From Tetradesmus obliquus (lineage: Eukaryota; Chlorophyta; Chlorophyceae; Sphaeropleales; Scenedesmaceae), in NCBI GenBank assembly GCA_030272155.1, contig CP126195.1, forward strand, positions 310,001-374,000: a DNA stretch of 64,000 nt, given 5' to 3'. Under the pieces are notes generated by a model. The model saw nothing but the letters and a program-made list of their open reading frames with translations, made no database searches and had not been told where the DNA came from. Shown in pieces: positions 1 through 64,000 of this stretch. The position numbers and the translations under genes are program-made. Position 1 is the stretch's first letter, and the number at the start of each line of letters is the position of its first letter.

Positions 1-980
1 TCATTACACCTGCTGCCAGCATTGCAGCAGGCGTGCATGGTGTCAGGAGCCATGTCTCAACATTGGGTGTTGCTGCTTGCAAGCTGCAGCTGGGTGCTGA
101 GCAGCACCGGAATCGGGCACATGCCCAGCATGGTGTAGACTACTTGCGATGCATCATTGACGAAACAAACTTGCACACACCTGCTGACAGTGACAACAGC
201 CGTGTTATGTCCAGTGTACAGGGCGGAAGGCTTTTCAGCAGATGTGGTGCAGGAAGCAGACCATTTTTAAAAATTATTTGTCAGCATGTTGTGTGCAGGG
301 TCTTGCAGTGACATGAACATGCACTGTCCAAGCTCTTGTTTGTGTGCAGCCTGCGTGCCGCCTTGCATCATGTGTGTTGGCTGGTGTAGCTGGATCCTAC
401 TGCTACAAATCAGCACACAATTGCCAGGCTGGCAGCTTGATGGCAGGTCCACGAGGCCGCAGTCAAGCAGTGCTGCGCGGCATTCAAGTTCATGATGATG
501 TTTCAAACCCTGTTACAACCAACACTGTGATGTTTTGCTGCTGCCAGCATCTGGCATGACACTGTCAACGGTTGACAGTGACTGTGCATGGCTGCTGTCT
601 ACCATGCATACGTGCAGGCATGAGGCACCATCATCTGGTGTTGCAAATTTGTGTTCACGAGCTGTTGTTTTGCACTGGGCTTTCAGCCCTGCCTGGCAGT
701 GCCAGGTCTGTAACCACCCAAGCCCTAGTGACACTGTTAGCTGGCCATCAGCTGGGAACTTTCTTCAGTGGTGTATGTTACAGCCGTTGCTGCGCTCCGG
801 GCCTCACGAACTCAGCAGAGGTCGTCTCATGGCCTGTCCTGAGCAACACGGCTATCAGCTTCACAGTGACACCTGTCCACATGGTAGCAGCAACGACATG
901 CTGATGATTGCATGCTGAGTTGATCGTAGTGTGCAGTCTTGTTCGTGCATACGAGCTGAATGCTCTAGCTTTAACACGAG
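1..980. other. Upstream region without a recognised gene
   Basis: No reading frame here has protein-like composition, convincing splice sites or a recognisable family. Short open stretches on both strands are rich in Cys, His and Ser, as expected from random frames in TGC/CAG-rich DNA. The region presumably holds the promoter and 5' leader of the coiled-coil gene whose ATG is at 981. One perfect palindrome lies at 560-580. Confidence 0.5.
560..580. repeat. Perfect palindrome with 10-bp arms
   Basis: CACTGTCAAC and GTTGACAGTG are exact reverse complements separated by a single G. It sits about 400 bp before the start codon of the golgin-like gene. It could be a dimeric transcription-factor site or a small hairpin; nothing else supports either role. 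Confidence 0.5.
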
Positions 981-3900
981 ATGGCCTGGTTAACCAACAT
1001 CAGCACGCTTACGCAAAGCCTGCAGGCAGCAGCTGAACAAGCGACGGATGTAGTTCGAGCAGTCGGTCTGGATGGACACCTCGTAAGTACATGCTGCTGG
1101 CTGCACCTGCGCGTGTTCTCATGGTGCCTTGCTGTTCATTGCCCTGCTGTGCTTGCAGCTTCTTCCTGCAAGTGCTGATACTCTTGATTGATGCCCTGTG
1201 ACACACGCAGGAGCAAGCAAGGCATCAATTCACCGACCAGCTCAGCAACTTAGCCACCAGCGTGCTCACCATTGAGCCAGGCACACAGCCAGCTGGGACT
1301 GCAGCTAGAGCAGCAACAGCATCTCCAAGCGGCGCTGCCAGGAAGCATGCACAGCAAGGGGCAGTGCCAGCAGCAGCAGGATCTCCGCAGTCTTCTTCGG
1401 CTTCAGGGGAGGCATTTGATGCAGATGGCTTTGCCAGCATACCGCTGGAGCCTGCAGGAGATGAGGTGCGTAGCAGTTGGCGGCGGTTGCTGCTGCAGAC
1501 TCACAACTGCACACAACATGGAGCTACCAGTCCCTCAACACATTTGCTCCTGGCTGCAATAGCAGCTGTTTGTAAGCGCGGCATGCCTGCCCGTGATTTC
1601 ACAGTGTTGTGATGCACAAAATTTTGCTTTGCTCCACTCTCCACTATCTGAGCCTTCTTTGTCCCCTCCTGTCCTGCAGGGCCCCCTCAAGCTGCTGGGC
1701 TCGCCCACAGCAGCCCTGGCAGCCGCAAAAGCCCGCCTGAGCAGCAGCAGCACCACCGCCACCGCCACATCCAGCAGCCTGGCAAAGGAAAACGCAGCGC
1801 TTAAAGCAAGGCTGGCAAAGGTTGAGGAGGCGGCAGCGGAGGCGCTGGGGGAGCTGCAGGACGCACAGGATGAGCTGGATGCACACAAGGAGGCGCGCCA
1901 GGCGGCAGAGCAGCAGGTGGGCTCAGGTTTTGGTGAGACGGCTTGGTTGCTGGATGCGCTGCATGTTGTGGACTTTTACAGCAGCAACAGAGGGTGAGCT
2001 GGATGCACACAAGGAGGCGCGCCAGGCGGCAGAGCAGCAGGTGGGGCTTCAGAATGCGTCGAAAGGCCTGCATGTCGGATGCACTGCATGCTGACACTTG
2101 AGACGACAACAGAGGTAGTAGCAGGAGTGGTGCTGTTGGGTGAATGACTGCCTCACGTGCAGCAATTGCGGTTTGAAGAGGGCCCTGTGACATGGCAGCA
2201 GGCGTCTGACATTGTTGGCATCTTGTTTTCAACACTCGCACCCCCAATGCTTGGAGCTTGGACTGGCCACGTGTACCGCGCAGTGTGCCAGCCTGCCTCC
2301 CTAAGTGGGACACAGCACACTGTTGGAGTGTGGCGTCTCTCCATCTGACAGCAACACATGTGCACCTGATGTCATGGGCTTGCTCCTGCTGCCGCCTCTG
2401 CCCCGCCATGCAGGTCCTGATGCTGCAGCAGCAGCTGAATGCTGCTCAAACAGGCAAAGACCAGGCGCAGCAGCAGCTGCAGCAGCAGATCCAGCAGCAA
2501 GCGCAGCAACTTCAGGAGTTGCAGCAGCAGCTGGAGCAAGCAACAAGCCAACAGCAGCAGCAGGCTCCTGCTGTTGAGGTTTCAGCAGATCTGCAGCAGC
2601 AGCTGGAAGCAGCCACGGCTGCTGCACAGCTGTGGGAGAGCCGGGCTCTGAAAGCCAAAAGCAAAGCGCAGGAGCTGCAGCAGCAGCTCAAGGCACTGCA
2701 GGATGAGCAGCAGCAGCAGCAGCAAAGTGAAGGTGCTCCTGCCTTGCAGGACATTGTCAGCAGCGCAGCAGCCAGTGCAGCAGCAGCAGTCGAAGTGGCT
2801 GCCTTGCAGGAGCAGCCGAGTCAGCTGCAGCAGCAGCTGGAGGCAGCGCAGGCCACTACAGCCACCTGGGAGGCGCGTGCCAGGAAGCAGCTGAAGAAGG
2901 GCTCAGAGCTGCAGCAGCAGCTGCAGGAAGCTACTGCGCAAGTGGCTGAGCTGCAGCAGCAGCTGCAGAGGGATGGCGCTGCAGACACAACAGCTGCCGG
3001 TGGTGTTGCGCTGTCTGAGCAGGAGCGGGAGCACCTGGAAGAGCAGTACAAACAGCAGCTGGCGGAACTGCAGCAGCAACTGCAGCAGCAACAAAAGGCT
3101 GCTGCTGAAGAGCAGCAGCAGTTGACGCAGCAGTGTGAACAGTCTGAGCAGCAGCTGGCAGAGCAGCAGCAGCTGGCAGCAGCGCTGCAAGCAGCCCTTG
3201 AGCAGGAGCAGCTGCGTGTCAAACAGCTTGAGGAGCAGCAGCAGCGGCAGGGTCCAGCCAGTCAGCCACCTGCAGCAGATGATGCCGTACATTCTGCTGC
3301 TGCAGCAGCAGCAGCAGCAGCAGAGGAAGAGTTGCAGTCGCTGGGGCAGCAGCTGCAGCAGCAAGCAGAAACCTTGGAAGAGGCTCAGCAGGAGTGGCAG
3401 CTAGCACACAATCAGCTGCAGCGTGCACATGCGCAGCTGGAGCATGCTCAGCAGCAGCAGCAGCTGCAGGCGGATGCAGCTGCAGCAGCAGAGGCATCCG
3501 CTGCAGAGGCGCAGCAGCAGCTGGCGGAGCTGCAGCAGCAGCTGCACCAGCAGCAGCAAGATTGGGATGCCAAGGAGCAGCAGCTCCTGGAGCAGCTGCT
3601 GCAGCAGCAGCATCGTGCTGATGACACAGCAGCAGAGAAGCATGCAGCAGCAGCAGCCACTCAGCTACACGCCATCCAGCAGCACCTGGCAAAGTGGGCT
3701 GCTGCTGCGTCCGCGCTGCACCCAGCACTGGAGGACCTAGAAGCGTCCAGCTGCGTGTCGCACCAGCAGCGGGAGCAGTTTGAATCTGTGCTGGACTCTC
3801 TGCAGGGCCAGATCCTGCCCGAGCTGCTCGCAGCTGCTGCTGCCGCTCCTGTAGCAGATGCTGCTGCTGCAGCCGGCGATAGCATGGATCTGGCTGGTAG

Positions 3901-6900: not shown

Positions 6901-7006
6901 CTGGCCCTGGCTGAAGCAGCAGAGGCGCGAGCAAAGGACGTCGACACGCACACGCATGGCGGTGCCAGCAGCCGGCCCAGCACAGAGCTGCAGGAGGACG
7001 CTGACT

Positions 7007-7043
<37 letters not shown>

Positions 7044-10583: not shown

Positions 10584-11683
10584 ATGGTGCTAGCGGCATC
10601 AAAAAGCTGCGTCGCAATCATCAATCCGGCAGGTATATTAACAAATTCGCTCAACTGCACTTTGACGTAGTCGGCACTAGGATGGCAATCTCACTGCACG
10701 GCAGGGCAGCAGCAGTAGCAGCAGCATCAGTTTGCACAGACGCAGCTATGTAACCGCACAGATGTCGCAGCTGCGACTCGTGAAAACAATTACTGAGACT
10801 TGTTTTTGCTGCTCACACGCAAGGTGCTGGAGGCAGGACCAAGCAAGCATGGAGCAAAGCAGCGCCAACTGTCAGGCAGAGGCTGGAGCTGGCTGAGTAC
10901 AAGGTGAACAGCAACAGCGCTTTGAGAGCACTGGCAGCACAGCAGCAAAAAGGAGCAAGAATCAGCAGCAGCTTGCAGGAAAGCTGTACTGCTGTATGGA
11001 TGCGTGTGATTGCCATGTGGCAGGTGGCTCACGTGGTGACGCCCTGCTGCGCTGCTGCTACCAGTAAAAGGGCATTGATGCTGTGCTGCTGCACCTAGAC
11101 GCGCCTTGGCTCCTGTCCAATGAGCACAACTGGCATGGCAAGACTGCCCCGCAGGGCATTTCAGGAGCACTTGCCACCGTGGCAGGCGCGCGGCTCACCT
11201 GCAGAGCAGCGCTTCCGCTCTTGAGGCTGTGTCACCACCAGCTGTTCCCTGTGTAGCCATCTCAACTGTGCTGCGCGTGTGCTGTTACCTAGTCTCATGC
11301 TGCGGGCCCTGCTGCCTGCAGCGGCTGTGGCCCGTACATGCCACTGCATGTCAAGCGCCCGTGCGCTATGCATGTGCTATTTGCACCACATGTTTGCATG
11401 CCGTAGGTCCTGCTGCCTGCAGCTTCAAGAGCGCTTTACTGCTAGCCCCGGGGAAGCGGCAATACAGCCCTGAAGGGCACTTCAGCAGCACTTGTCACAT
11501 GCTCTTGTGGTGATCTATATATAGTCTGCTGACGCTTGAACATTGCGCGGGTCCTGCTGCCTGCAGCTTGAGGAGCGCTTCACTGCTGGCCCCGGGGATG
11601 CGGTGCGGCTGGCTGCGGAGGCGGTGGCGGCAGGCGCGGCTGCTGTGCTGGCGGTGGGCGGCGACGGCACCATCCACGAGGTG

Positions 11684-13161: not shown

Positions 13162-14956
13162 TATGCTGCCATGTGTGTTGGCTGCTGCTGCCTATGCTGC
13201 CATGGTATGTTGGCTGCAGCTTATCCTGTAGCGTCTGTGGCAGCACTGCTCAAGTACAAGCCACTGGCGGTGCAGGTGTCCTGTGATGGAGGCCCCTGGC
13301 AGGTGTGCTGCTCCGTTAAATAACACATCAATCAACCCCTCATGATGGGACATGGGACATGGGATGTTGGATAGAAGGGGCTATATCGGTGTGTTAGTGC
13401 GGCTATGCCACGACAGACACTGCTTCTCCCTCGCCAGCTGCAGCATCATGTAGCGTCTGTGGTTCGAGAATCAGGCTTGACTCCTGCAGTCATAGCCGCA
13501 GCAACGGCATCATCATCAAGACATGACAGGGCAGTGAGCCTGTGGCTGGTCTCACGTCAATCGCCTGTTGTCCATGGGATGGTGTTATGTTGCCACTAGG
13601 TGTGATACAGCCTGGACTGTTGTGTCAAAACATCTGCATGCTGTGTTTTGCTGCTACTGCTGCAGACGTTGGAGCAGCTCACCATGCTGGTGGTGGGGAA
13701 TGGCATCTACTGGGGTGGAGGTGAGCGCGCATGTAGAAGGACAAAATCATGCAATTAATGCATGTGCCTGCTGCTGGTGTGGCTCGGGGCCTGTCAGACA
13801 TGAATATCCTGGCCTCATTGTATATGTGGTGAGCTGTGTGCGTAAGGCAGTGGAATTTCCATGTAGTGCCGGCATCGCTTGCTTGTGTTTTGCCGAGTTG
13901 CACCCAGCAAACATGTCACAGCGGCATCCCATGCTTGACTGCGTCTGACAAGACAGATCTGCACACAGCTCGGCATCAGAGCAGATCCCTGCAGCACTCC
14001 ACCCCGTGTTGCCAACGCAAGCCATTGATGCTGAACTTGTCTGCGCACATGTGCCATCCGTCATGCCCCGCAGGCATGCGTGTGTTCCCGCGCGCTAGCA
14101 CACATGACGGGCTGCTAGATACTATGATAGTGCAGCGCATGGGGCTGGCTGATCTCGTCACTAAAGGTGGGACCCTCACACAACAAGCCTTGTTTCAAAG
14201 CCGCTCACCAGTTGGAGTATATAAGATGTCAGCAAGAGTGCACACTGGCTGGACGCCATGGTGGTGTAGTGCATGGGGCTGGCGGACTCTGTCACTAAGT
14301 TGAGGCCTTGTTTCAAAAATGCTCAGTGCAACATCAGCCGTTGGAGCAGATATCATCATGTCAGCAAGTGTGCGGGCTGCTGGAAGACATCTTACTGCAG
14401 CGCATGGGGCTGGCGGACCACATAACCAAAGGTGAGGTCGTATTTAGAAGCCGCTCAGCCCTTAGAGCAGGTACACTGTTTGCATCCTGGCGGACACCAT
14501 AGTGCAGCGTATGGGGCTGGCAGACTCCGTCACCAAAGGTGAGGCCTTGTTCCAATGCTGCAGTGCTACGTGCCTGCTGCCAACTGCTGCGCTGCCTTTG
14601 CGCGCAGTCAAGCGGCTGGTCGCCTGCCATGCCCAGCCAAAAGTGGAGGCCTTCTCATGAGGATTCTTGAGGAGTTTTGGTCATGGTTCGACCCCTGGTT
14701 CAACACGCATGCTGTTGAACAACACAAATGCCTTGTAGACCCGAACTGTGACGGGTTCTACTGCTCATGCTTCTGCTGCTGGCTGTGCTGCCGCTGCTGC
14801 CTTTGCTCACTCAATTATCTGCCTGCAGGCCACCTGCTGCGCTCAGGAGAGTATGAAAACCTGCAGAACGTGACAACGCTGCCGCCCTGCAAGTCTCTGA
14901 AGGTCAGACCAGTCCAGACTGCAGGCGCAGCAGCAGCAGCAGGCGCAGCAGCAGGC

Positions 14957-29986: not shown

Positions 29987-32968
29987 GGCTGCCTGCTGCT
30001 GCAAAGTCCCTGCTTGTCTCATTGCCGCTGGGGTAGTTGAGGAAGGCTGGGCGTGAGCGCAGGCCCAGCAGCTCAAACATCTGCTCGTCCTCGTTCCTGC
30101 AAGTGTGCACAGCCAGCAGCAGCGCGCGGCAAGCAGTTCATGGCCGCCGTGTGAGTGCATCTGGGTTACGTGTCTATCCTCGCAACCGCATGCATGTGAC
30201 GTGCAGTGCCAGATCAGACAGGCAGTTGCAGCGCTGCAAGTAACACGTGGCTGGACAGCTGCTGCGCCGCCCATTATCGTTGTCGGTCGTGGTCAGCACC
30301 TGCATCCCCCTACGCTGTACATAACACATGACGCTGCCGACTGCCGCTTAAGACTGCCGCTAGCTGCCGCCATGAATCACCCACCTGTCATTGTTGGGTG
30401 TGGTGAGCAGCTTGTCACCATCAAAGATGCTGTTAGCGCCAGCCATGAAGGCCAGGGCCTGCTCTGCACTGCTCAGGTCCAGCCGCCCCGCGCTCAGCCG
30501 CACCACGGTGCGCGGCATCACGATGCGGGCTGTTGCAATGCAGCGCACCAGGTCCAACCCTGAGGGCGGTTCCTGGTTCTGCACATGAAAAAAGGCATGC
30601 AGCAGCCAATTGTGTGGGAGTTAAACCCACAGCCAGCAAGCAAGCCAGCTGTGGCGATGCAGCGCACCAGGTCCCGCCCGGATGGCGGTTCCTGGTTCTG
30701 CACGATGGAAGTGAAGACATGCAGCAGCACAATACGCTGACGCAGTGCAGAAAAACTCAGCATTGCTCGCTGGCACAAACACTGAGCTCAGCAGCAAACA
30801 AGCCACACGCACCTGCAGCGGCGTGCCCTTGACAGCCACCAGCCTGTTGATGGGCACGCAGCTGTGTGCAGCTGCACTGCAAGCTGCACAAAACAACGAT
30901 CACAGCTGCCGCAATCAGACATATGCATCAGCACACCCGCACCTGCAGCGGCGTGCCCTTGACCGCCACCAGCCTGTTGATGGGCACGCTCTCAGGGTGC
31001 TCGGGCAGCGTGGCCAGCTGCAGCAGCAGCCCCACGCGGTCCTGCGGGCCCTCCCCAAGCCCGATAATGCCGCCAGCACACACGCTGATGCCCGCGTCAC
31101 GCACCGCAGCCAGCGTGCTCAGGCGGTCCTCGTACCTGCACGCAGCCGGGCACAATAGCAACAGGTAAGTTCGGCGGAAGCAGTAGCAAGGCGTTGGCTG
31201 AAAGCAGCGTGCTCAGACGGTCCTCGTACCTGCACGCAGCCAGGCACAATAGCAGCAACGCGTAAGTCCGGCGGAAGCAGCAAAACTAGTGTTGGCTGAA
31301 CGCAGCGTGCTCAGGCGGTCCTCGTACCCGCACGCAGCCAGGCACGTGCGACGCAGCAGCGCCAGCAGCAGCAGCAGGTGAGGCTAGTGGTTCGCAAAAC
31401 ACATTGAAAAGTGATTATCTGGCTGCACCACTCTGGGCATCACTTTCCAATCATGCCAGGCACATGTGCCAGTCTGCAGAGATCACGCTGCCTCAAAGCA
31501 GTTATAGGTTGTCCCGCTCACTTGCGCGTGGTGGCTATTCACCAGTCAGTTGGACATGCTTGCATCACTAGCCGGTATGTTCACTCACTTGCGCGTGGTG
31601 GTGATCTGGCCGTAGTACTCTGGGCTGGTGTCCAGGTTGTGGTTGTAGGCAGTCAGCCCTGCCTCGCGCAGCTCGCGCGCCTGCTCAGGGGTGAGCATGC
31701 CCAGCGTAGTGCACACCTGCACAGCCACACAATTGTTGTTTGTTGTACTCGTCTGGAAGGACCAGCCGTCACTGCTTGATAGCCGTTTCTTACTTGCACA
31801 GCGCCACTGCCAGCGTGTGCCCCAACATACCTGGGAACTCATCCCCATACGCAGTGCAAAGCGAAGCAAATCCAAAGAACACATAGCAGGGAATAATGCA
31901 AACTGACACTCTGGCTCTCACCACCATGCCCAGCCCCCTGATGCGCCGCACCACTCCAGCACAGAACAGCACAAAAAAAATCACAAGAAGCCAGTTCGAA
32001 CTGATTGGAGTGTTACTAACAGACAGCAAGGCCATACAGCGCCCCTCACATCCAAGCCCAGCCCGCGGATGCGCCGCACCATCTCCAGCACGCGGCCCTT
32101 CTAACAACCGCACAGCCACACAAACCTCAGGCACTGCAGCAAAGCATAACAGCCGTGCCTCACCTCCATGCCCAGGCCCCTGATGCGCCGCACCATCTCC
32201 AGCACGTGCCTTTCTGACACAACGCAGCACATAACAAACACAAGGCAGCCATGCACAGCACGATCACAAGGCGTACCTCCATGCCCAGGCCCCTGATGCG
32301 TCGCACCATCTCCAGCACGCGGCTCCACTGGCGCGGCCCCACCTGGCTGGGACCACGCCACGCAGCACCCATGCAGAAGCGCGTGCTGCCGGCCTCACGC
32401 GCCCGCAGCGCGGCCTGCACTTTCAGACAATTCAAAGTGTTGGTGAGCAACAGCACACCGCATGCCGACAAGCCGTGCCCATGCAGAAGCGCGTGCTGCC
32501 GGCCTTGCGCGCACGCGGCGCAGCCTGCAGTTTCAGACAGTTCATGTCATGAGTGAGCGCCAGATTTATCAGCGTGCTGAGAAGGCACCTGCAGCTGTCC
32601 AATGGCAATGTGACATTTATGCTGCGCCGCACCTCGTACACGGAGCACCAGGTCCATCAGCAAGCTAACAACGCACGTACTGCTCTTCAAAGCGCACGAA
32701 CATACTAGATACTTGGTACTTATGCTGCGCCACACCTCGTATACTGGCTCCAGGTCCATCCGCATGCTCAAAAGGCCTGCAATTACTGAACGAACCATGC
32801 AAATGACAGACACAACCGCTCGCCGCACCTCGTACACCGGCTCCAGGTCCATGAGCTTCTCCGCCTTGAGCCCCGTGTCCTCGCTCCAGTGGCTGCTCTG
32901 GCTGCAGTAGTTGCAGTTCTCGGGGCAGCCGCCAGTCTTGATGCTCAGCAGCGTGCAGCGCTGGACCT

Positions 32969-35936: not shown

Positions 35937-37643
35937 GATCAACCCACATGCTGCCACAGGTCCACTGCTCCCTCTGCCTTCACCGGTTACGCCTTCCACG
36001 TGGTGGAGGCGCTGATCGTGTTAGCTGCGCCCAATCTATCCCTCCCATCTCTCTGCCAACATCCTGCCAAAACTCAAGGTATTTCTGCCTTGCTGCCGGT
36101 GCTGTTCACCAAACTGCTCTCGACACAAGCCCCCGCAGGTGCACTGCTCCCCATGCAGCCTCTGAAACATCCTTTCTGCACTGCTGCTGCTATGCACCGC
36201 ACATGCTGCCGCAGGTCCACCGCTCCCTCTGCCTTCACCGGCTACGCCTTCCACGTGGTGGAGGCACTGATCGTGTTTGCGAATGAGGTGCTGGTGTGCT
36301 GGCTGTTCCCCATCCACATGGGACTGCACCGCATCTACCACATCGCAACCACAGTCATACACGAAGGTGCGGCGGCACAGCAGCAGCAGCGGCAGCAGCA
36401 GCAGCAGCAGCGCAGTGCAGCAGCAGCAGTGCTCTTTGCGCTGCACGCAAGCTGCTGTGGACGGCCTTTCTCTGAAAGGTGGCCTGCCCTGCCTGCAGGC
36501 AGCTGAGCGCTCGCGTCCTGTGCGCACTGCAACAGCTGCTCCCACCTATCACACTTTTGCAGCCTTAGAGCAGACTCGCACTGACAGTAATCAAACTGCC
36601 TGCCTGGTTGTGTCCTGCGTAGTCCCGCCTGCCTTGCCCACTTGCCGTAATGCAGCTGGGCTTGTGGGCTGCGAGCTGTTGCCCTTCATCCGATGCATGC
36701 ATGCGCCCAACTAACTGCCTGTGGTGCTGGCCCCCTGCCTGCCATGCAGCTGGCCATGTGGGCTGCGAGCTCTCTCTCTTCATCCCCACTGTAGAGCCCT
36801 GCATGCTCATTGCTCTTACTGCTGCTGTGCACTCGCCATTCCCTTCCTATGCAGCTGGGCACGTGGGCTACAAGCTCTCTCCCTTCACCCCCACTGTAGA
36901 GCCCTGCATGCTCATTGCTCTCACTGCTGCTGTGCACTCGCCATTCCCTTCCTATGCAGCTGGGCACGTGGGCTACAAGCTCTCTCCCTTCACCCCCACT
37001 GTAGAGCCCTGCATGCTCATTGCTTTTACTGCTGCTGTGCGCTCGTCAATCCCTTTCTATGCAGCCGGGCACGTGGGCTACGAGCTCTCTCCCTTCATCC
37101 CCACACTTGAGGGCATTGCTGCGCTGCTGGGCTGCGGGCTGCGGGGCTCCCCGGGGCTCAACACGGTGCAGCACCACGACATGCACCACAGGTGCGGCTG
37201 CTGTTGTATAAGATCTTTGGTTGTTTGAAAGCGCTGTGTGTGTCACTTGGAGCAAATCACGATGAGCTGCTTGCTGCGCACTGTTGCACACACTCGACAC
37301 TGGAAACGGGCAGTGCGCTGCAATATGCTGCGCCAGTTACACACCGGTATGTAATAGGACAATTGTCTACAGTCCTGGAATGTCGTGCTGCTGTGCTGTG
37401 CTGTGCTGTGCTGTGCTGTGCTGCAAGTACCCCACCAAGCACTTCTCGCTGCACCTCAAACTGTGCTTCGCACTGTGCTTCGTTGTGCACTTCACTTCAC
37501 GCTGCTCTGTACTTACTACTCTTGCTGTGCTGTGCCGCAGGTACCCCACGAAGCACTTCTCGCTGTACTTCACGCACTGGGACCGCTGGATGGGCACGCT
37601 GCACCCCAAGTACGACGCGGGGCTCTTCAGGTACTTCAGCTGA
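34524..37643 (+). CDS. Sterol desaturase / fatty acid hydroxylase superfamily enzyme
   Basis: Six exons (34524-34743, 35019-35119, 35463-35584, 36215-36366, 37065-37191, 37541-37643; phases 1, 0, 2, 1, 2) give 274 aa. This is a membrane di-iron enzyme family acting on sterols, sphingoid bases, fatty alcohols or carotenoids. The histidine boxes are visible: HDAWFYWTHRALH, HWEHHR and, near the C-terminus, QHHDMHHR, with additional histidines in GLHRIYH and VIHEAGH. Membrane spans surround residues ~20-40, ~75-90, ~110-125 and ~165-190. The protein ends KYDAGLFRYFS without an obvious ER retention signal. The substrate cannot be assigned: it lacks the signatures I would need to call C-5 sterol desaturase or sphingobase hydroxylase. 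ATG 34524 gives a short Ser-rich lead before the first span; no plastid presequence is evident. Confidence 0.88.
35951..36020 (+). repeat. Exon echo: start of sterol-desaturase-like exon 4
   Basis: The acceptor region and first ~60 bp of exon 4 (real copy from 36205) recur about 254 bp upstream, nearly identical through GTGGTGGAGGCGCTGATCGT and then diverging. The acceptor AG of the copy is intact, so it could compete for splicing. Confidence 0.88.
36645..37064 (+). repeat. Four exon echoes of sterol-desaturase-like exon 5, 105-bp period
   Basis: Copies of the end of intron 4 plus the first ~45 bp of exon 5 begin near 36650, 36747, 36851 and 36956; the real exon starts at 37065. The later copies are exact 105-bp tandem repeats, each with TATGCAG|CTGGGCACGTGGG or similar. 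After the exon part they carry a shared unrelated tail (CACTGTAGAGCCCTGCATGC) that replaces the coding sequence. Only the last copy continues into a full exon. Confidence 0.93.
37389..37460 (+). repeat. CTGTG repeat and exon echo of sterol-desaturase-like exon 6
   Basis: A pentanucleotide (CTGTG)n run at 37391-37422 is followed by a copy of the first ~25 bp of exon 6 (TACCCCACCAAGCACTTCTC). The real exon begins at 37541, so the offset is about 114 bp. Confidence 0.85.
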
Positions 37644-40724: not shown

Positions 40725-42564
40725 GCCCTCTGCCTCTACATGCAGCAGCAGCGCAGGCATCAGCCCCACCAGCAGCAGCGCAGGCGGCCTGAAGCCCAGC
40801 TGCAGGTGGCTAGACAGCAGCGCAGCAGCGTGCTGCAGCCGCCACTGGCAGTAGTGTGCTGATGTTGCATACTCATCTGGGTTGGCTGCATGCAGCTCAA
40901 CGGCTGCAGCAGCCGCCTTGCAGGCCTGTGTAACAGAGGGTGTAGGTGCGAAAGGGGTGGGCAGCTTGATGCTTGACGTGCTGCTGCAGAATGCATGTGA
41001 ACGGCTGGCATGCAGCTCAATGGCTGAGGCGGCAGCTTTGCAGGCCTGTGTAACCGAGGGTGTAGGTACAAAGAGGGTGTGCAGCTTGATGATTGACGTG
41101 CTGCTGCAGAATGCATGTGAGTGGCTGGCATGCAGCTCAATGGCTGAGGCAGCCGCCTTGCATGCCTGCACAACGGAAAGAGCACGTATGATTTGGGGCA
41201 GGGCAGCACGGGAGCTGGCACAAAAGGGATGTAGCAGCAGCCACGCGTCTTGATCCAACCAGGTGGCCGATGCTGCCATTCTCAACAGCTCACCAGCTGC
41301 AGCTAACAGACAGCCCAAAAAGCTGAGGCGGACAACCAAACAGCTCATTTGGCCCGTGATGGCAATGCCGCCATACTATATTATTGGTAATACATCACAA
41401 CACAACACAACACACGAAAACCCACCTGCTGATCCAGCGCATGCAGCAGCTCAGGCACCACCACGCTGCGGTGCTGCCACAACATCATAGCAAATAACAT
41501 GAAATAACATAACGCATGACAAGCCACCTGCTGGTCCAGCGCATGCAGCAGCTCAGGTACCACCACGCTGCGGTGCTGCCATAGCACATCATAACATAAC
41601 AAAATTAACATGAATTAACATAACACATGACAACCCACCTGCTGGTCCAGCGCATGCAGCAGCTCCGGCACCACCACGCTGCGGTGCTGCAGCCGTGCAT
41701 ACACGGCTGCCACTGCCGCCAGCTGCTGCGGGCTGCTGGGGGCCTGCAGGTGGCGTGCCCTCACACGCTTGACCAGCCAGCCAGCCACAGCATCAAACAT
41801 GCGGAGGCTGGGGCCTGCAGCAGCACCAGCGGCACAAAAACAGTAGCACAAGGACGGCACACTGAAATGAAGTGATTTGATGAGCCTGGTGCTTGATGCA
41901 CGCAGCCTGCTTTGGGCAAGCTTTCAAGACGTACATAAGCAGGAAAGGAGCAGCGTGCAGCACCACCAGCACTTCGCCCTGCAGCAGCCACCAGGGCCAA
42001 CACAGCAGCCAGCTTTTTGTGGCGATTACCTGCACAGCTGCAACATACACACCAGCAGCTTTAAATCTGCGACAAACAAACTCAACATCCTTTTGCTGCA
42101 GGCCTGCATAGCTGCCCAGCGCGCACGCATCACAACACGCTTATTCATCAAAGTGGCCGTTTTGCAGCTTGTTTGCCTTGAGAGAGAGGAATGGTTCTTC
42201 CAAACAACAGCCCGCACAAACTCACCATCCTTGTACTGCAGGTCTGCATAGCTTCCCAGCAGGTTTGCAGCCCCTTCCACAGTGAAGCTGCCAGCTGCGC
42301 TGTGCCTGTTGCTCAGCTGGCGGTACACCTCATGCGCTATCGCATCCAGCAGCTGCGCTGCGGCCTGAGACTTGAACCCTGCTGCTGCTAAACCCGCTGC
42401 TGCATCAGTGAGGTCTTCCGGGTGCCAAGGGTCTAGCAGTTGGGCTTTAGCGTTGGGGTTTTGGGGCTGGAAGGATGCAGGGATATCTGCTGTGTTGTTA
42501 GAGTACTGGATGAGGTGTGTGATGTGGCTGCAGAGCAAGGTGAACAACTGCTGTTGTTGTTGCT

Positions 42565-42618
<54 letters not shown>

Positions 42619-42945
42619 GCTTGTTGCCTGATTTCTGCTGTAGCCGTGTCAACTGGCCACACGCCCACAGCAGTGACACAGCATCCTGCAGCACAAGGCA
42701 GAGCGGAGCAAGGGAAGGCACGACAATGAGGCGCATGCTGCACACGTGAAATTCGCATATGTTACTGACGAGACACACACAGCATCCTGCAAGGCAGGGA
42801 ACTTTTGGCAACGCTTTCTAGAAAGAAAGCAGTGAGGCCCACACCGTGCATGCTTGCTGTTGCAACGCTGGCTGCGACAGTGAGGTCATAGCAGCCAAGC
42901 GATGTCTCTGCATTGGGGTCATGCGCACCGATGCAGCAGCGCACG

Positions 42946-42976
<31 letters not shown>

Positions 42977-51674: not shown

Positions 51675-51745
51675 ATTTGAAGCTGCCTATGCATCTGGCG
51701 CAACCCCAGCCAGCTGCAGCAGCTTTTCAAGCTTTGCCACAGATG
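51675..51745 (-). repeat. Echo of the 3' end of the 433-aa gene
   Basis: The last ~60 bp of the coding region (coding around EELLQLAGVVPDA and stop, 51865-51925) recur about 190 bp downstream of it in sense direction, over 85 percent identical. Here the echoed piece spans a stop codon rather than a splice site. Confidence 0.85.
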
Positions 51746-54702: not shown

Positions 54703-54721
54703 AAACAGCGCGCCAGCTGTT

Positions 54722-54965
54722 GTTGCTGCTGCTGCCGCCCTCAGCGCGGCCCGCCACCGCGCCACTGCCCAGCAGAGCGCGCTAGCTGAAACTGCTGTTG
54801 TCACAGCGCCAGGCTGTCGCTGATGCAGACCTACTGCGCGGCACGCCACTGCTGCCATCAGTTTCACTGCTGGCTGTCGCTGCTGCTGCAGCCCTCAGCG
54901 CGGCCCGCCACTGCGCCCCGCTTCTGCAGCTCTTCAGCCATCTCATGGAAGCTGACTGTGCTGAA
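54722..54965 (-). repeat. Two echoes of the last NDUFAF5 exon
   Basis: A copy of about 80 bp of the final exon (coding [20 protein letters not shown]; real copy 55085-55170) lies at about 54880-54960. A shorter one lies at 54725-54785. Both are 3' of the stop codon in sense direction, at spacings of 155-205 bp. Confidence 0.88.
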
Positions 54966-56559: not shown

Positions 56560-59500
56560 CAGTCAACAGACAGCCCCAGCACCACCAGCCACAGCGTCGG
56601 CACCACCAGTTTGTGCACACGCATGCAACATAACAGCAAGAAACACCAAGGGACTGCCCGACCATGCGTGGGACAACTGACAGCAGCGCTACCGCTGGCA
56701 CCAGCAGCAGCAGCAGCAGTGCACTGCGTCCTCACCTGCACCGTCTGCCCCCCAAGCATTGCCCCCAGGAAGAGCCCGTCGGGCTTCAGCGCCCGCCTGA
56801 TCTGGGCCAGCGTGCCCTGCACAGCAGGCAGGGCAGACAACAAGGCGCAATGCAAATATGGGCTGGTTCACTACGCACAGCCGCACGGCGTGACCCACGC
56901 AACACCCAGAGGTGCTCGCTTTGCAGGCAACATTGAGCTGAAAGCGCACGGTAAGGTACATGGGAGGTGCAGGGTGGCGTTTAAATAACTGGAGGGAGCA
57001 CTTGCCAAGTGCTTGGGAAGTCGCTGTTTGTGCAGTTGTAGCCGAGTGCTGCTGTCTGTCCAGCACACAACTGTTCACCACACAGCCCCGCCAGCCAGCC
57101 AGCACACAAGGTGCTGCCGCCGGCTGAGGCCTGCCTCGCTGTGCGTGCCCTGTTACAGCGCCCAGCCACCACTAGGGCTGGCCGCTGGCTTTAGGGACGG
57201 CTTTGAGAGTCAATTCAATCACACATTGCAAGCCACCAGAATGCAATCCAACTGTGAACACAAGGCATGCATGTGGTGCAGAGCCCAGCCACAACTAGGG
57301 CTGGCCGCTGGCTTTAGGGACGGCTTTGAGAGTCAGCCGGTATACACATTGCTTGCCCCCCCCCCCCTCCAAATTGCAATCCAAATGATGTAAGACCACG
57401 CAGTCTGAATGTGGCTGCACATTGTTCTGTTCCGTACAAACACGAGCGATGTGCAGGATTCTGCAGAGACACGGGGGTGCATGCATGTGTTCGCTTTCAG
57501 CATGGAGTTCGCAGTGCTGCTTTGCATGTGAACCAGATCGAAAGCGCTTGATCTGGCTATGGTGAATGACCCGCCGCTCACCGGCACGTCGTTGACCCAG
57601 TGCAGCCCCAGGCAGCTGACAATCACTGCAGCAGCAAGAACACAAGGCAGCTGAGCGAACAAGTTGCACAGCAGCGGAGATCAACCAAAATGCACAGAGG
57701 CTGAGCGGGCAAGATGCACAGCATGAACAGGACAGCATAGGCATTACTGGGCTGCACGAAGTGCATGCGTACACAATAGGAGCGCGCAACGAACAATCAT
57801 CAAGTGCCGGCATGCACATTGTCTCAGGCTGTTATGGAGCTCACCCCAAACCTAAACCTGCGCCTATTGTAAACTAGCGGATGCTCACGGTCCCGTCTGC
57901 CAGCGGGAGGTACTGCTCACCAGCCAGCACATACAAGTTCTCACATTGCTGCTGAACCCAAGTGTGAACCTGATGCTGCGTCTTCAACCTACAAGTTGCT
58001 GCTCACGGTCAACGCTGCCGTCTGCCAGCGGCAGGTACTCCTCATCAGCCAGCACGTATGAGGTCTCAGGCACGTGGCCTGGCGGGTGCCGCGCCTGCTG
58101 CTCCGCTGCGCGCTCCTGCAGCCAGGCCGCAGCAGACTGAGTTCATCCCAATGAGCGGCAGCAGGCATGCTGCATCACGCGCTGCGCCACACATACGCTT
58201 GGTCACGCTGAAGCACGTGAGCCGCATTATGCACACATGCGATGACAAGGCACGGTTCCCACCTCCACCTTGCCACCTGAAGCATGCCTGGCGAGGTGTG
58301 TCCGTGTATGGCTCCAATGGCCCAGGCCTTCATCCACTGCATATGTATAGGTGTTGTCCGCGCCTCACCTTTGCTAGTTCAAGCATGCCTGGCGAGGTGT
58401 CCATGTGTATCACGCGCTGCACGCCCGCGCGCCCGCCAGCCAGGCCCTGAGCCACCACCTCCCCAGCACCACCCAAAATAACAGCAGTGGGGAAGCTGGA
58501 GAGGCAGTCCTCCAGCCTGTCTAGTACTGCTTCAGATATCAGGCCCTCCTTTTGTACATGAATATATCATCCACGACTTTCTCACCTTTGCTAGCTCAAG
58601 CATGCCTTGTGATGTGTCCATGTGTATCACGCGCTGCACGCCAGCCCTCCCGCCAGCCAGCCCCTGAGCCACAACCTCACCCGCACCACCCAGAATAACA
58701 GCAGTGGGAAAGCTGGAGAGGCAATCTTCAAGGCGGTCCAACAACCGCTCGGTGATGTGCAGCAGCAGCGGGTCGGGGCGGTGCAGGGCACGGCGCAGCA
58801 GCGCGGCCCGGTCACGCTGCGCAGCCTTTTGGGACCTGCAGGGGAGGGGTGGGGTGGGAGGACACGCATTTTGCTGGTTTTCTTGCTGCAGCTGCTGATT
58901 GTAACCTTGGCTGTGCATGCAGTGACCAAATGCACATAGCAACGCAGTTCCAACTGCAGTCTGTCATAAGTGTTTTTTGTAACATCTAATGCACAGCCAC
59001 AGGATGCCTGCAACGCCCTGCTGCTGGATTGCGCATCCACCTGCATTGGCTGTGCTGGATCTTCTTTTACATGCTGTACACTTGCTGTCCGCTGCTGCGC
59101 AGCTGCCAGTTATGTGCTGTGCCACCCGCAATAGAGAGAGGATAGTTACATGTGGGTCCTGGCACCATCTTGAGCCACAACAGGTTGAACACAGGTCTGA
59201 GACCAGAAGAGGAGAGTGAGCACCGTAAAACACACTGCACACCCTTGAGCACCAAATCTCTCATGTTATATCCAGAGGCGTCTTACTGCGGTGCGCAACG
59301 GCACCCCACCTCACCGGCAGCTTGCTCTCAGTGCAAACCACACCAACAGATAGCATGCTGTCGCAAATCAATAGCCAGAAGGGTCGGGCAGCAGCTTCTA
59401 AGGCAAGGTCCAGCAGTTAGCAGCAAATGGACAGTACAACTACCCTACTGCGCGTGACGCGCTCATGAGCTAGGTTCAACAGCATGTAGCGTGTCATCTT

Positions 59501-61006: not shown

Positions 61007-62314
61007 GACTGCAGAAGCTGGAGTTCAGTGCAGACATCCTGTCAGCGCTGAAGGATCTGCAGGCAGCAGCAGCCCTGCCCAAGTGGGGCTGCGAGTCGCC
61101 AGAGGCACAAGCAGGTGCGCTGTCAGCAGCCAGCATGCGTGCTAGGCTACCCGCAGCACATTCAGCTCGCCTGCTGTCCGATCAACTGTGCTGGTTCAAC
61201 AAACTGCAAGGGTGAGCAAACAAGGTGTGCACGCGGCAGTCGATTGAAGGCCCCGCGTTGCCTTGGCAGAGTCGCCAGCGATGCAGCAGCACCCCCAGCA
61301 GCAGCAACCCACCAGCACCCTTCTATCAACCGCAGCCAATCAGCGGCAGGACTTCAGCTGCCAAGCGACCCACATCGTGTCTTAGAAGCAAGCTGAAGCA
61401 CAGCAGCACTAAGATGTACAACCGAGACTTGCACTCAAGCAATACGTTGCGTGTGGGAACTCACGTTGTTGCTGGCGTTGTGACCTGTACCCTGCAGGCC
61501 AGGAGCAGGCGGGCGGCTTTGCTGGCCCTTCTGCGCGCCGCAACGTGTTCATGGGCGAGCTGAAGCAGATGGGCATCAAGGCGCCAGACCAGATCGCCAC
61601 ACCATCAGTGCGCAACGACAGTGCCTTCCTGTTCACAGTCGTTGGTGAGTGTGTTTTTGGGTGCTAAACAAGATACTTGGCTGGACCATGCATGCATGCA
61701 TCCTGCGTGCTGCGTCAGCATGCTGCCTGACCGCTGCAGGCAACAACAGCGCCTTTCTCTTCGCAGTCGTGGGTGAGTGCTGCGGTTGAGCAGCACAAAG
61801 AGATGGAGTGCTGTGGCCAGGCCCTGCATGGAGCTGCTGTGCTGCGCTGCGCTGTGCTGCGCTGCGCTGTGCTGCGCTGTGCTGTGCTGCGCTGTGCTGT
61901 GCTGCGCTGTGCTGTGCTGCGCTGTGCTGTGTTGTGCTGTGCTTGCAGACGGCTGCATGCTAGGTGGGCATGCTAGTTTGAGTTTCTCGCGTGTACCAGT
62001 CCAGCAGTTGTTTAAACCACCTGTCCTGCACTGCCACTGACAGATGTTATGTGCTGCCTGCCTCTCTTGTCGGCATCCCAGTGGCTATCCCACCGCTGCT
62101 GCTGCTGTTGTAAACCACAGGCGTGTGCAGCGTTGCCGCGGTGCTGCTGGGCCAGCTGCCAGGCAATTGGGACTGTTCTAGCTTCTCATTTAGCTCATGG
62201 CTCTGCTGCTGCTGCTGCTGTGCCCTGCAGGCGTGTGCAGCGTTGCCGCGGTGCTGCTGGGCCAACTGCCTGGCAATCGAGACTGTGATATTGTTGCACG
62301 AAATTGATGGCTCT

Positions 62315-62346
<32 letters not shown>

Positions 62347-62437
62347 GCTGCAGGTGTGTGCAGTGTTGCCGCGGTGCTGCTGGGCCAGCTGCCTGGCAAT
62401 CGGTACTGTGATATTGTTGCACGAAATTGATGGCTCT

Positions 62438-62469
<32 letters not shown>

Positions 62470-64000
62470 GCTGCAGGTGTGTGCAGTGTTGCCGCGGTGC
62501 TGCTGGGCCAGCTGCCTGGTGACTGGGGCTTCTTCAGCAGCTACCTGACAGGCGCCATCGTGCTGGTGGTGCTGGCGGTGGGGTCGACAGCACCAGGGCT
62601 GCTGCAGGTGTGGGGAGTGGTTAGCGTGCTACAGTGCTAGAAGAGGCAGCTGGCAGGGCAAGCACAGCTGATGCGGACATAAGCATGCGAGCGTTGCTGC
62701 AGGAGCAGGGGTGTCTGCAGCACGTGGATGGTGTGCTGTGGCGATGGCTGCGCTGCGCACCTGGACGGTGCTTCTTTCCTCTTTATCAGCAGCGCAGCTT
62801 TCAAACGCGTCCTTGGTTTGTGTGAGGCTACGTCTCAGCACCCGCCCTGCTGCTGTCGCCCCCCGCAGGTGTTCATTGACAAGTTCAGCCAGGTGTTCCC
62901 AGACTACAGGGAGCGCGTGGTGGCACACGAGGCGGCACACCTGCTCATCGGTGAGGGGGCTGTGCTGTTTGAATGAGCTCTCCTCTTGCTGAGAGCATAA
63001 GGTGGAATGCACAAGCAAGCTGCCGCGGTTGCCACGGCAGCACAAACTTCGCACGGACGACATGCCACACCTGCTTGTAAGAAGGCAGGAAAAGTCAATG
63101 CAACAGCATTTTTGTGCATTTGCCACATCCTGCTGGGCCTGCCTGCTGATCGCGGCTTGTCTTGGTGAACATGGGCTGCAGGCTACCTGATGGGTGCCCC
63201 CGTCACCAGCTGCAACCTCTTCCTGGTCACTTACTGCTTGCCTTGTTCTGCACTGTGCATGCTCACCGCAGGCTACCTGATGGGTGTGCCTGCTACCAGC
63301 TGCAACCTGATCACATTGTGTGACAGCTTCTCCCTGCTGCGTTTCTGTAATTGAAGAAGCATCTTATGTGTTTGCATGCTGTCTGCAGGCTACCTCATGG
63401 GTGTGCCGGTGACCAGCTACAACCTGGGCATTGGCCAGGAGCACGTGGAGTTTGCGGAGGCCAAGATCCAGGCGCGCATCATCACACGGGACCTCAGCGA
63501 TGCAGAGATCGACGCCCTGGCAGTGGTGGCGGTTGCAGGTGGGGCAGGATGATGCTTTCCATATTTTTACGTTGTCATCTTCGTTGCTGGCAGCTCTCCA
63601 CTTGGTGTATTTCACCAGGCAGTGGGCCAAGACGCTGCTTTGAAGCCATTCAACAGCCACAATGTGCGATTGCGCGGCATGCTGTTGAGTTTGGCGGAGG
63701 AGGCCAAGATCCAGGCGCGCATCATCACACGGGACCTGAGCGACGCAGAGATCGACGCGCTTGCTGTGGTGGCGGTGGCAGGTGAGCTGGGCTGATGTGT
63801 TGGTGATGTTATCATATTCGTCCTTTGGGTGGGGGTGCGTGGCGCGCATCATCACGAGACCTCAGCGACGCAGAGATTGACGCGCTGGCAGTGGTGGCGG
63901 TGGCAGGTGGGACAGGCTGGTGACAGCACTCAAATCATGGCGGGTGGGGCTGGCTGGCGCATACACACAGCTCTTTTTGCAAGCTGCAAACCTTTGAGCG
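60461..64000 (+). CDS. Chloroplast membrane protein with HEAAH zinc-site motif (partial)
   Basis: Six exons lie in the window: 60461-60649, 61015-61114, 61498-61644, 62477-62607, 62869-62950 and 63389-63538, with phases 0, 1, 1, 0, 1, 1. They give 266 residues; the gene continues past the window end. The first ~40 residues are a plastid transit peptide ending near AVRCTAQAAA. Two hydrophobic spans follow, one across the exon 3/4 junction (FLFTVVG-VCSVAAVLLGQL) and one at TGAIVLVVLAVG. HEAAH at residues 209-213 lies in ERVVAHEAAHLLIGYLMG, and GVPVTSYNLG and a DLSDAEIDALAVVAVAG helix come after it. This matches the plant family of plastid proteins related to the FtsH (M41) protease domain but lacking the AAA module (VIR3-like). 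Activity as a protease is not shown by sequence alone. Its introns hold seven or more exon echoes. Confidence 0.82.
61739..61777 (+). repeat. Exon echo: end of HEAAH-gene exon 3
   Basis: A copy of the last ~30 bp of exon 3 plus its donor (coding SAFLFTVVG) lies at 61746-61776; the real copy is 61618-61648, an offset of about 128 bp. The GTGAGTG donor is intact and the frame is preserved. Confidence 0.9.
61838..61945 (+). repeat. CTGTG/CTGCG pentanucleotide array
   Basis: About 20 units of CTGTG and CTGCG alternate irregularly in HEAAH-gene intron 3. Both strands are open over long stretches, giving meaningless Cys/Ala-rich frames. Confidence 0.92.
62112..62476 (+). repeat. Three exon echoes of HEAAH-gene exon 4
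   Basis: Acceptor plus the first ~45 bp of exon 4 (coding VCSVAAVLLGQLPG) occur near 62119, 62229 and 62353, then as the real exon from 62477. Periods are about 110, 124 and 124 bp. Each unit includes a (CTG)n tract and a CAG acceptor. The copies diverge after the LPG codons (GCAATTGG or GCAATCG instead of GTGACTGG). Confidence 0.94.
63178..63310 (+). repeat. Two exon echoes of the start of HEAAH-gene exon 6
   Basis: Copies of GCAGGCTACCTGATGGGTG and the next ~25 bp lie at 63178 and 63269; the real exon starts at 63389. The first copy keeps its CAG acceptor. Both turn into unrelated sequence after the SCNL codons. Confidence 0.93.
63690..63910 (+). repeat. Two exon echoes of the end of HEAAH-gene exon 6
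   Basis: About 90 bp of the end of exon 6 with donor (coding AEAKIQARIITRDLSDAEID...) recur at 63697-63785. A copy of about 65 bp lies at 63842-63908. The first is about 95 percent identical to the real copy at 63450-63540 and keeps a CAG|GTGAG donor. In the second a small deletion breaks the frame. Confidence 0.93.

What the first reader, a model, noticed from the sequence alone, without database searches (positions are those of the whole stretch)
1..64000. Window-wide 'exon echoes': local duplications that span splice junctions
In at least eight of eleven main genes, introns contain decayed tandem copies of a piece made of some intron, the splice site and 25-160 bp of exon. Spacing is most often 100-145 bp. 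Both 5' and 3' exon edges are affected, one to four copies each, usually more diverged with distance. Examples are BIO2 intron 4 (three copies), the sterol-desaturase-like exon 5 (four copies, 105 bp) and the HEAAH gene exon 4 (three copies, 110-124 bp). Tandem duplication containing AG|GT is a proposed route to intron gain and alternative splicing; here it appears as an ongoing, genome-style process rather than a rare event. The 100-145 bp spacing may reflect a mechanical step such as template switching or nucleosome-scale repair. I know of no described system that would produce this pattern so densely.
Basis: partly seen in the sequence, partly recalled or inferred. Interest (0 to 1): 0.82.

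Follow-up and report, generated by a model that had tools for sequence, protein, structure and literature searches.

The report
Exon-edge echoes inside algal introns
In a green alga's genome, many introns hold decaying same-direction copies of the edges of neighbouring exons, usually 100-140 bases apart and more often at exon edges than random duplication would give, which points to a little-known way in which introns may grow.

Summary
With simple repeats masked, the window and 25 sampled loci hold 494 local direct repeats against 4 at control lags; lags peak at 100-140 bp. Of 142 clusters, 127 involve a predicted exon edge (85 by random placement), 8 are intron-only (29 expected), none is intergenic (17 expected); the sampled loci alone repeat this. 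A simulation of uniform neutral duplication with slower exon decay gives 32-38% exon-involving pairs; 80% are observed. T. obliquus proteins for three window genes leave the echoes out. Echoes look neutral: 43 frameshifting against 4 in-frame indels. In 25 loci no local inverted copies were found. Best reading: same-strand tandem duplications of about 115 bp across exon edges, left as echoes inside introns, with exon edges either attracting them or keeping them recognisable, perhaps by gene conversion. Intron gain, ongoing activity and alternative splicing are not shown. In 13 of 32 adjacent high-identity pairs the intron flank is not recognisably copied, which plain tandem duplication does not explain.

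The parts
32277..32414 (-). BIO2 real exon 4
   Evidence: gene finder and P0001 residues 144-191
32465..32527 (-). echo of the start of BIO2 exon 4 (3' splice side)
   Evidence: residues 144-164 at 76% identity; not in the protein
32161..32205 (-). echo 1 of the end of BIO2 exon 4 (5' splice side)
   Evidence: residues 177-191 at 100%
32047..32094 (-). echo 2 of the end of BIO2 exon 4
   Evidence: residues 176-191 at 88%
31919..31954 (-). echo 3 of the end of BIO2 exon 4
   Evidence: residues 180-191 at 83% (E 0.08); DNA pair 31917-31962/32159-32205 at 96%
30943..31135 (-). BIO2 real exon 6
   Evidence: gene finder and P0001 residues 233-297
31205..31231 (-). echo 1 of the start of BIO2 exon 6
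   Evidence: E 0.33; TRF array 31111-31345, period 98
31303..31326 (-). echo 2 of the start of BIO2 exon 6
   Evidence: E 0.25; DNA pair with 31111-31153 at 95%
30813..30857 (-). echo of the end of BIO2 exon 6
   Evidence: exon part 98% identical over 47 bp
30638..30703 (-). echo of the start of BIO2 exon 7
   Evidence: lag 119
36215..36366 (+). sterol-desaturase-like gene, real exon 4
   Evidence: P0121 residues 148-198 at 100%; ends read from the sequence
35960..36025 (+). echo of the start of sterol-desaturase exon 4
   Evidence: 94% identity, lag 255
37065..37191 (+). sterol-desaturase real exon 5, the only copy in P0121
   Evidence: ends read from the sequence
36633..37064 (+). four upstream copies of the start of sterol-desaturase exon 5, spacing 94/105/105/105
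41639..41690 (-). predicted exon end (5' splice side) in gene call 38812-44454
   Evidence: gene finder
41426..41579 (-). two echoes (41528-41579 and 41426-41477) of that exon end, 96% identical
   Evidence: one place in the genome
42086..42120 (-). echo of predicted exon end 42226-42260, lag 140
11423..11459 (+). echo of predicted exon start 11567-11603, lag 144
14115..14551 (+). four related copies of one exon-edge-like piece, spacing 134/131/107
   Evidence: family D19; which copy is used was not settled
58586..58835 (-). methyltransferase (NDUFAF5-like) real exon
   Evidence: P0241 residues 59-144, gene finder
58369..58521 (-). long copy of the end of that exon (lag 217)
   Evidence: not duplicated in P0241
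57880..57943 (-). echo of the end of methyltransferase exon 58007-58115 (lag 118)
54716..54962 (-). two copies of the CDS end (stop codon, not a splice site) of the methyltransferase gene, downstream of 55068-55232
   Evidence: stop codon read from the sequence
51680..51741 (-). copy of the predicted CDS end of gene call 51869-53265, lag 182
   Evidence: by position
62115..62470 (+). three copies of the start of the HEAAH-gene exon that begins near 62474, spacing 110/123/123
63176..63309 (+). two echoes of the start of exon 63389 of the HEAAH gene
63688..63922 (+). two downstream copies of exon end 63445-63538 of the HEAAH gene
   Evidence: which copy is the used exon is not settled here
61740..61772 (+). 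echo of exon end 61612-61644 of the HEAAH gene, lag 128

Best explanation
The introns carry the remains of recurrent, same-strand, local tandem duplications with a unit of about 100-140 bp that straddles an exon edge. After such a duplication only the copy joined to the rest of the exon is used. The outer copy becomes a neutral echo inside the intron (or, at a CDS end, beyond the stop codon), and later events tend to push older echoes outward. Shown: direct orientation only (25 loci); preferred unit length; enrichment at predicted exon edges; no intergenic clusters; echoes absent from three annotated proteins; frame-breaking indels in echoes. Inferred: that the exon edge either attracts the duplication (a bias at birth) or keeps echoes recognisable by repeatedly re-copying selected exon sequence into them (gene conversion or transient template switching), which would explain sharp similarity ends at splice sites or stop codons and patchy mismatches. 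The DNA step itself (slippage, template switching or fill-in of staggered nicks) is a guess.
For: Lag peak 100-140 bp; 494 against 4 at control lags. Cluster classes against random shifts: 127 of 142 with an exon-edge pair (85.2+-5.5), 8 intron-only (28.6), 0 intergenic (16.8), 7 exon-exon (11.1); sample alone 105 of 117 against 71.8. Simulated uniform neutral duplication with slower exon decay predicts 32-38% exon-involving, 44-49% intron-only, 17-19% intergenic; observed 80%, 13%, 1%, plus 5% exon-exon, of 282 pairs. Label bias is small: 176 of 190 implanted intron and 70 of 71 intergenic duplications keep their label. Direct 373, inverted 0 (controls 3 and 1) in 25 loci; 10 of 10 implanted inverted copies found. 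Exon part and spacer anticorrelate (-0.56, 49 pairs), as for one unit of 123+-17 bp. Flanks of 57 adjacent pairs are related as a group, mismatch 0.295 against 0.444 random; 67 of 122 pairs reach p<=0.05 singly. Mismatches cluster inside exon parts in 14 of 83 pairs at p<0.05, Fisher p 7e-6, some pairs counted from both sides. Protein anchors.
Against: Of 32 adjacent pairs with exon identity >=0.9, 13 have a spacer no more similar to the sequence beyond the echo than the null 95th percentile; over all lags, 13 of 28 instances at >=0.96 and 28 of 41 at 0.92-0.96 lack flank similarity (some counted from both sides, and in longer arrays, e.g. L019 2680/2954, a truncated last copy may be the reason). 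In 15 pairs with clearly related flanks the exon/flank divergence ratio is 0.49, near plain neutral decay, so these need no conversion. Conversion alone needs about 60 events per substitution and a lax homology need to reach a fourfold lifetime gain, while enrichment over intron-only clusters is about fivefold. The edge peak is not seen at the 25+25 edges of the very strongest exons (0.07-0.12 at edges, 0.00-0.24 in introns). Coverage more than 1 kb from strong exons (score >=20) is still 0.07-0.09 against 0.12-0.15 within 600 bp. Introns with echoes are not longer in my models (median 242 bp with none, 206 with one, 99 with two), though the gene finder cuts introns at copies. Codon-position-3 mismatches are 2.2-3.3 times those at positions 1-2 in high-identity pairs, at or above a neutral echo. 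Most junctions rest on a self-trained gene finder; the 'junction' class includes CDS ends.
Confidence: 0.5

Rival explanations
1. Duplications of about 115 bp arise evenly along the genome and are neutral outside coding sequence. They look exon-linked only because introns are short and dense and because exon copies stay recognisable longer.
For: Random placement alone already puts 85 of 142 clusters on an exon edge. Recent pairs contain a junction only mildly above chance, 41 of 72 against 31.0+-4.4. Coverage falls only gently with distance from strong exons, and the edge peak is absent at the strongest exons (25+25 edges).
Against: The simulation with that ascertainment predicts 32-38% exon-involving and 17-19% intergenic pairs; observed 80% and 1%. 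Among recent pairs (>=93% identity, 72) intron-only are 4 against 16.7 and intergenic 0 against 8.4.
Confidence: 0.12
2. The duplication process is aimed at exon edges or expressed gene bodies by a transcription- or splicing-linked event, so the bias is mutational.
For: Zero intergenic clusters against 16.8 expected. Coverage is 0.24-0.29 in the last 50 bp of exons before donors, 0.083 in deep introns and 0.021 in intergenic DNA. In pairs of >=93% identity, 47 of 202 junction instances end 3-9 bp inside the intron.
Against: Copies of a CDS end (54716-54962) end at the stop codon, not at a splice site, so the boundary may follow coding constraint rather than splicing. No link to expression was tested.
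Confidence: 0.25
3. One-step local templated insertion: a piece of exon edge with its splice site is copied into the nearby intron, without tandem duplication of the flank.
For: High-identity adjacent echoes without a flank copy, e.g. L011 591/701 (98% over 55 bp) and L024 7030/7182 (98% over 87 bp).
Against: Such repair should also insert inverted copies; none were found in 25 loci. As a group the flanks are related, and exon part plus spacer behaves as one unit (correlation -0.56).
Confidence: 0.1
4. Echoes are functional: alternative or decoy exon edges kept by selection.
For: Splice dinucleotides are intact in 109 of 122 echoes, somewhat above expectation in the most diverged class (41 of 46 against about 74%). 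Third-codon-position mismatches are in excess. In-frame stops were seen in only 8 of 122 echoes.
Against: Within echo exon parts 43 indels break the frame and 4 keep it. T. obliquus proteins P0001, P0121 and P0241 contain none of the echoes. Echo exon parts are mostly partial.
Confidence: 0.08
5. Assembly artefact or protein-repeat artefact.
For: None found; raw reads could not be checked.
Against: Most copies are diverged, not identical. Lags outside exon-exon pairs are evenly spread mod 3 (116/132/120), while exon-exon pairs prefer multiples of three (14/5/2). Clusters occur in 25 of 28 sampled loci before exclusions (none in L008, L018, L021).
Confidence: 0.03

Closest known systems
[quoted passage not shown] reviewed in PMC3443670, passages read)
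   Same: Local direct duplication in coding genes; duplicated splice-site sequence; no foreign DNA.
   Different: There an exonic AGGT segment is duplicated and a new intron appears. Here the unit straddles an existing exon edge and no new intron was shown.
Potato RdRp junction-crossing tandem duplication (PMC4974935, abstract read)
   Same: The duplicated piece crosses an intron-exon boundary and carries splice signals along; the nearest single case found.
   Different: One event that gave a new intron. Here about one cluster per 2.1 kb, a preferred spacing of 100-140 bp, and the outer copy left as a silent echo.
Drosophila novel introns from coding tandem duplications (PMC2891723, passages read)
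   Same: Local duplication reshapes gene structure; one copy becomes intronic.
   Different: A few introns, from exonic units with proto-splice sites; the passages seen describe no arrays of decaying edge copies.
Introners (PMC9860276, passages read)
   Same: They change introns in bulk and are reported in green algae.
   Different: Introners are dispersed families of similar introns. Here three units tested occur only at or beside their own place.
Minisatellites or tandem repeat arrays (recalled)
   Same: Direct repeats with a unit length, probably grown by slippage or unequal exchange.
   Different: Here a few copies tied to exon edges, not free arrays.
Paired-nick or patch-repair tandem duplications in plants (recalled; one search gave a listing only)
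   Same: A possible DNA route to short direct duplications.
   Different: Not tested here; no exon-edge preference known to me.

Membership tests
[quoted passage not shown]
   373 direct and 0 inverted in 25 loci
[quoted passage not shown]
   copies straddle existing exon edges; 67 of 122 pairs carry a related intron flank
[quoted passage not shown]
   no aligned second genome; in three genes the echoes lie inside introns, or past the stop codon, of the mapped model
Introners | similar intron copies at many unrelated loci | tested here: not met
   3 of 3 echo units searched match only their own place, one with a further copy beside it (the search skips common words)
Tandem exon duplication / mutually exclusive exons | whole exon with both splice sites and frame kept | tested here: not met
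   mostly partial edges; 43 frameshifting against 4 in-frame indels over 122 pairs
Tandem exon duplication / mutually exclusive exons | copies are spliced into transcripts | not testable with these tools
   no RNA data; three annotated proteins lack them
Protein-repeat coding | period is a multiple of three | tested here: not met
   non exon-exon pairs 116/132/120 mod 3
Minisatellite | occurs irrespective of gene structure | tested here: not met
   0 of 142 clusters intergenic against 16.8 expected

The most novel reading that the evidence does not exclude
T. obliquus has a continuing, gene-linked mutation process that duplicates a stretch of about 115 bp across exon edges, in one orientation only. 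Introns grow stepwise outward from both edges, and the conserved exon keeps re-copying itself into its nearest echoes. Much intron sequence would then be decayed exon-edge copies, of which the recognisable ones (about 9% of intron bases if each stands for 115 bp) are the youngest or best kept.
Probability: 0.3. Interest if true: 0.88.

Novelty: new variant of a known kind. Interest (0 to 1): 0.72.

Why it matters
Where intron sequence comes from, and what makes introns lengthen, are open questions with few traceable events. Here the source of the sequence is still readable at about one strong exon edge in five (95 of 484), with a preferred step length, so birth, decay and re-copying could be measured directly in a cultured alga with two 17-contig assemblies (PMC12571836, table passage). 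It also warns annotators: my gene finder took several echoes for extra exons.

Tried and rejected
Rejected: (1) chance or composition (control lags; cross-locus control, 212 hits at score >=40 against 13 expected, nothing dropped); (2) coding protein repeats (lag mod 3); (3) dispersed intron elements; (4) inverted copying (positive control); (5) label bias of the gene finder; (6) pure ascertainment (simulation). Inconclusive: whether gene conversion alone can give the enrichment (toy model: only at high conversion rates). No support: simple repeats as the trigger, since the masked fraction is lower beside echo junctions (0.025) than at all predicted intron edges (0.063). Uninformative: intron length against number of echoes, where introns with echoes came out shorter because the gene finder cuts introns at copies. 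One search failed on a script error and was redone. Literature: ten searches, of which I saw titles and abstract beginnings, listed no paper on dense exon-edge copies in introns; most subscription papers are not held, and Gao and Lynch 2009 was not held.
Full report
WHAT WAS EXAMINED. The window is G000:C5:310001-374000 of a 104,662,953-base, 17-contig genome. BIO2 matches a T. obliquus protein (98% to a hand-edited query) and the sterol-desaturase-like gene matches OEZ86_012425 of T. obliquus (100% over 92% of a hand-edited query). A table in PMC12571836 (passages read) lists T. obliquus GCA_030272155.1 with 104.70 Mb and 17 contigs; that this is the same assembly is an inference. Besides the window I used 28 stretches of 10 kb, at least one from each of the 17 contigs. 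Before most counts I dropped window 1-7400 and loci L003, L005 and L017, because CAG-rich coding sequence or long satellites dominate them (seen); 306.6 kb remain, about 0.3% of the genome.

THE REPEATS ARE REAL AND HAVE A SIZE. A scan of lags 8-699 with simple repeats masked found 494 local direct repeats (score >=22) against 4 at control lags 3000-3691; with nothing dropped, 594 against 11. At score >=25 the histogram rises from 1-5 per 10 bp at 50-80 bp to 35-38 per 10 bp at 100-130 bp, falls, and rises again at 240-260 bp. Window and sample show the same first peak separately. Merged, they form 336 alignments in 145 clusters, one per 2.1 kb; a second, non-redundant set has 282 pairs (lag 60-450) in 142 clusters. 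Lags of pairs that are not exon-exon are evenly spread mod 3 (116/132/120); exon-exon pairs prefer multiples of three (14/5/2), as selection for frame would give.

GENE MODELS. No RNA data were available, so I trained a gene finder on the sequence itself; it converged on donor AG|GTGAG and acceptor CTGCAG|G, with 644 introns of median 224 bp. T. obliquus protein P0001 (BIO2) maps to eight exons and skips eight further edge-like pieces: one before exon 4, three after exon 4, two before exon 6, one after exon 6 and one before exon 7, that is 5 of 14 splice edges (three pieces have weak E-values but recur as DNA repeats). P0121 contains one copy of the start of sterol-desaturase exon 5 where the DNA has five, and skips the copy of the start of exon 4; P0241 (methyltransferase) skips its copies too. 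In L025 the predicted Rpt2 matches the best PDB chain, 8amz_I (labelled AAA domain-containing protein; other matches are labelled 26S proteasome regulatory subunit 4), in three pieces that overlap on the chain, so two stretches are present twice in the prediction.

PLACEMENT. Copies cover 14% of predicted exon bases, 11.8% of intron bases and 2.1% of intergenic bases. Over all predicted exons, coverage peaks at edges (0.24-0.29 in the last 50 bp before donors, 0.20-0.25 in the first 50 bp after acceptors) against 0.083 deep in introns. Random shifts within each locus give 85.2+-5.5 clusters with an exon-edge pair, 28.6 intron-only, 16.8 intergenic and 11.1 exon-exon; observed 127, 8, 0 and 7 of 142. 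Three of the seven exon-exon clusters (L025 903, L028 3987, window 54864) are, by eye, echoes whose copies were both labelled exon. The 25 sampled loci alone give 105 of 117 against 71.8, 7 against 24.4 and 0 against 11.8; the window alone 22 of 25 against 13.9, 1 against 4.2 and 0 against 4.8. Among recent pairs (>=93% identity, 72), intron-only pairs are 4 against 16.7 and intergenic 0 against 8.4.

WEAKER OR CONTRARY PLACEMENT RESULTS. The simple test 'a predicted junction lies inside a copy' for the same recent pairs gives 41 against 31.0+-4.4, reached in 5 of 300 shifts. At the 25+25 edges of the very strongest exons (score >=50) there is no clear edge peak. Coverage by distance from strong exons (score >=20) falls only from 0.12-0.15 within 600 bp to 0.07-0.09 beyond 1 kb. 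Introns with echoes are not longer in my models (median 242, 206 and 99 bp with 0, 1 and 2 echoes), but the gene finder cuts introns at copies, so this test is blunt.

IS IT ONLY ASCERTAINMENT? Exon copies are constrained, so their echoes stay recognisable longer. I simulated uniform duplication with that effect: exon-involving pairs come out at 32-38%, intron-only at 44-49% and intergenic at 17-19% over three age ranges; observed are 80%, 13% and 1%, with 5% exon-exon, of 282. Implanted duplications show little label bias: 176 of 190 intron and 70 of 71 intergenic implants keep their label. So plain uniform duplication, as modelled, does not explain the placement.

ANATOMY. At strong exons 55 of 244 5' edges and 40 of 240 3' edges have at least one echo on the intron side. 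Exon part (mean 49 bp) and spacer (mean 74 bp) anticorrelate (-0.56), so their sum, 123+-17 bp, behaves like one tandem unit (49 pairs). At 25 edges with two or more echoes the nearest is more similar at 16, the farthest at 6, tied at 3. Copies are direct only: 373 direct (control 3) against 0 inverted (control 1) in 25 loci; 10 of 10 implanted inverted copies were found. Three echo units have no copy elsewhere in the genome; one has a further partial copy next to itself. L027 2180-3400 is the clearest case: about five copies, the real one included, at each of two exon edges, spaced about 95-120 bp, by eye.

ECHOES LOOK LARGELY NEUTRAL. Indels in echo exon parts are 43 frameshifting and 4 in-frame over 122 pairs; in-frame stops were seen in 8 of 122. 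Splice dinucleotides are intact in 109 of 122, close to expectation except in the most diverged class (41 of 46 against about 74%). Mismatches fall more on codon position 3, by 2.2-3.3 times in high-identity pairs and about 1.7-2.4 times in the others. My estimate for a neutral echo of a constrained exon is about 1.5-2, so some constraint or mutation bias remains possible.

WHAT PLAIN TANDEM DUPLICATION DOES NOT EXPLAIN. Among 32 adjacent pairs (exon identity >=0.9, lag 85-170) the spacer is no more similar to the sequence beyond the echo than the null 95th percentile in 13, for example L011 591/701 (98% over 55 bp) and L024 7030/7182 (98% over 87 bp). Over all lags, 13 of 28 instances at exon identity >=0.96 and 28 of 41 at 0.92-0.96 lack flank similarity; some pairs are counted from both sides, and in longer arrays such as L019 2680/2954 a truncated last copy may be the reason. 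The share with flank similarity does not rise with exon identity (18 of 31, 25 of 45, 24 of 46). Yet as a group adjacent flanks are related (mismatch 0.295 against 0.444, 57 pairs), and in the 15 with clearly related flanks the exon-to-flank divergence ratio of 0.49 is near simple neutral decay. Mismatches cluster within exon parts (14 of 83 at p<0.05, Fisher p 7e-6, pairs not all independent). At the CDS end of the methyltransferase gene the similarity stops at the stop codon, not at a splice site. This mixture suggests that the constrained exon re-copies itself into some old echoes whose flanks have long diverged. In a toy model conversion raises the lifetime advantage of exon-anchored pairs from 1.5 to 4.1 only at about 60 conversions per substitution with a lax homology need. 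A bias at birth is about as likely.

COMPARISON AND NOVELTY. The nearest single case found is the potato RdRp duplication that crosses an intron-exon boundary (PMC4974935, abstract). Tandem duplication as a source of introns is established (PMC3443670, passages; PMC2891723, passages). Introners differ by being dispersed (PMC9860276, passages). Ten library searches listed no report of dense exon-edge copies in introns; many journals are not held. I call it a new variant of a known kind: the building block is known, while its density, step length, exon-edge anchoring and possible re-copying are not described in what I could see.

LIMITS. No RNA, no second genome, no raw reads; about 0.3% of the genome was sampled; the gene finder was trained on the same sequence and predicted junctions carry errors; the class called exon edge includes CDS ends. 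'Ongoing' and 'intron gain' are not shown.

Noticed in passing
window 54716-54962 and 51680-51741: Copies of the coding end of two genes lie downstream of the stop codon, so the habit is not limited to splice sites.
   Followed up: partly
L005 1-1146, L017 1-6040: Long satellite arrays with periods of about 191, 274 and 351 bp.
   Followed up: no
L018 1-10000: The predicted protein repeats about two and a half times in tandem and looks transposase-like by eye; no family search was run.
   Followed up: no
window 2429-7356: Predicted protein dominated by Gln/Ala-rich coiled-coil-like sequence encoded by CAG/GCA runs (gene-7863).
   Followed up: no
whole genome sample: CAG and CTG trinucleotides are very common: combined density 0.06-0.12 per base over the sampled loci.
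   Followed up: no
window 62203-62519: CTG runs sit between the HEAAH-gene copies, but simple repeats are not enriched beside echo junctions in general.
   Followed up: yes
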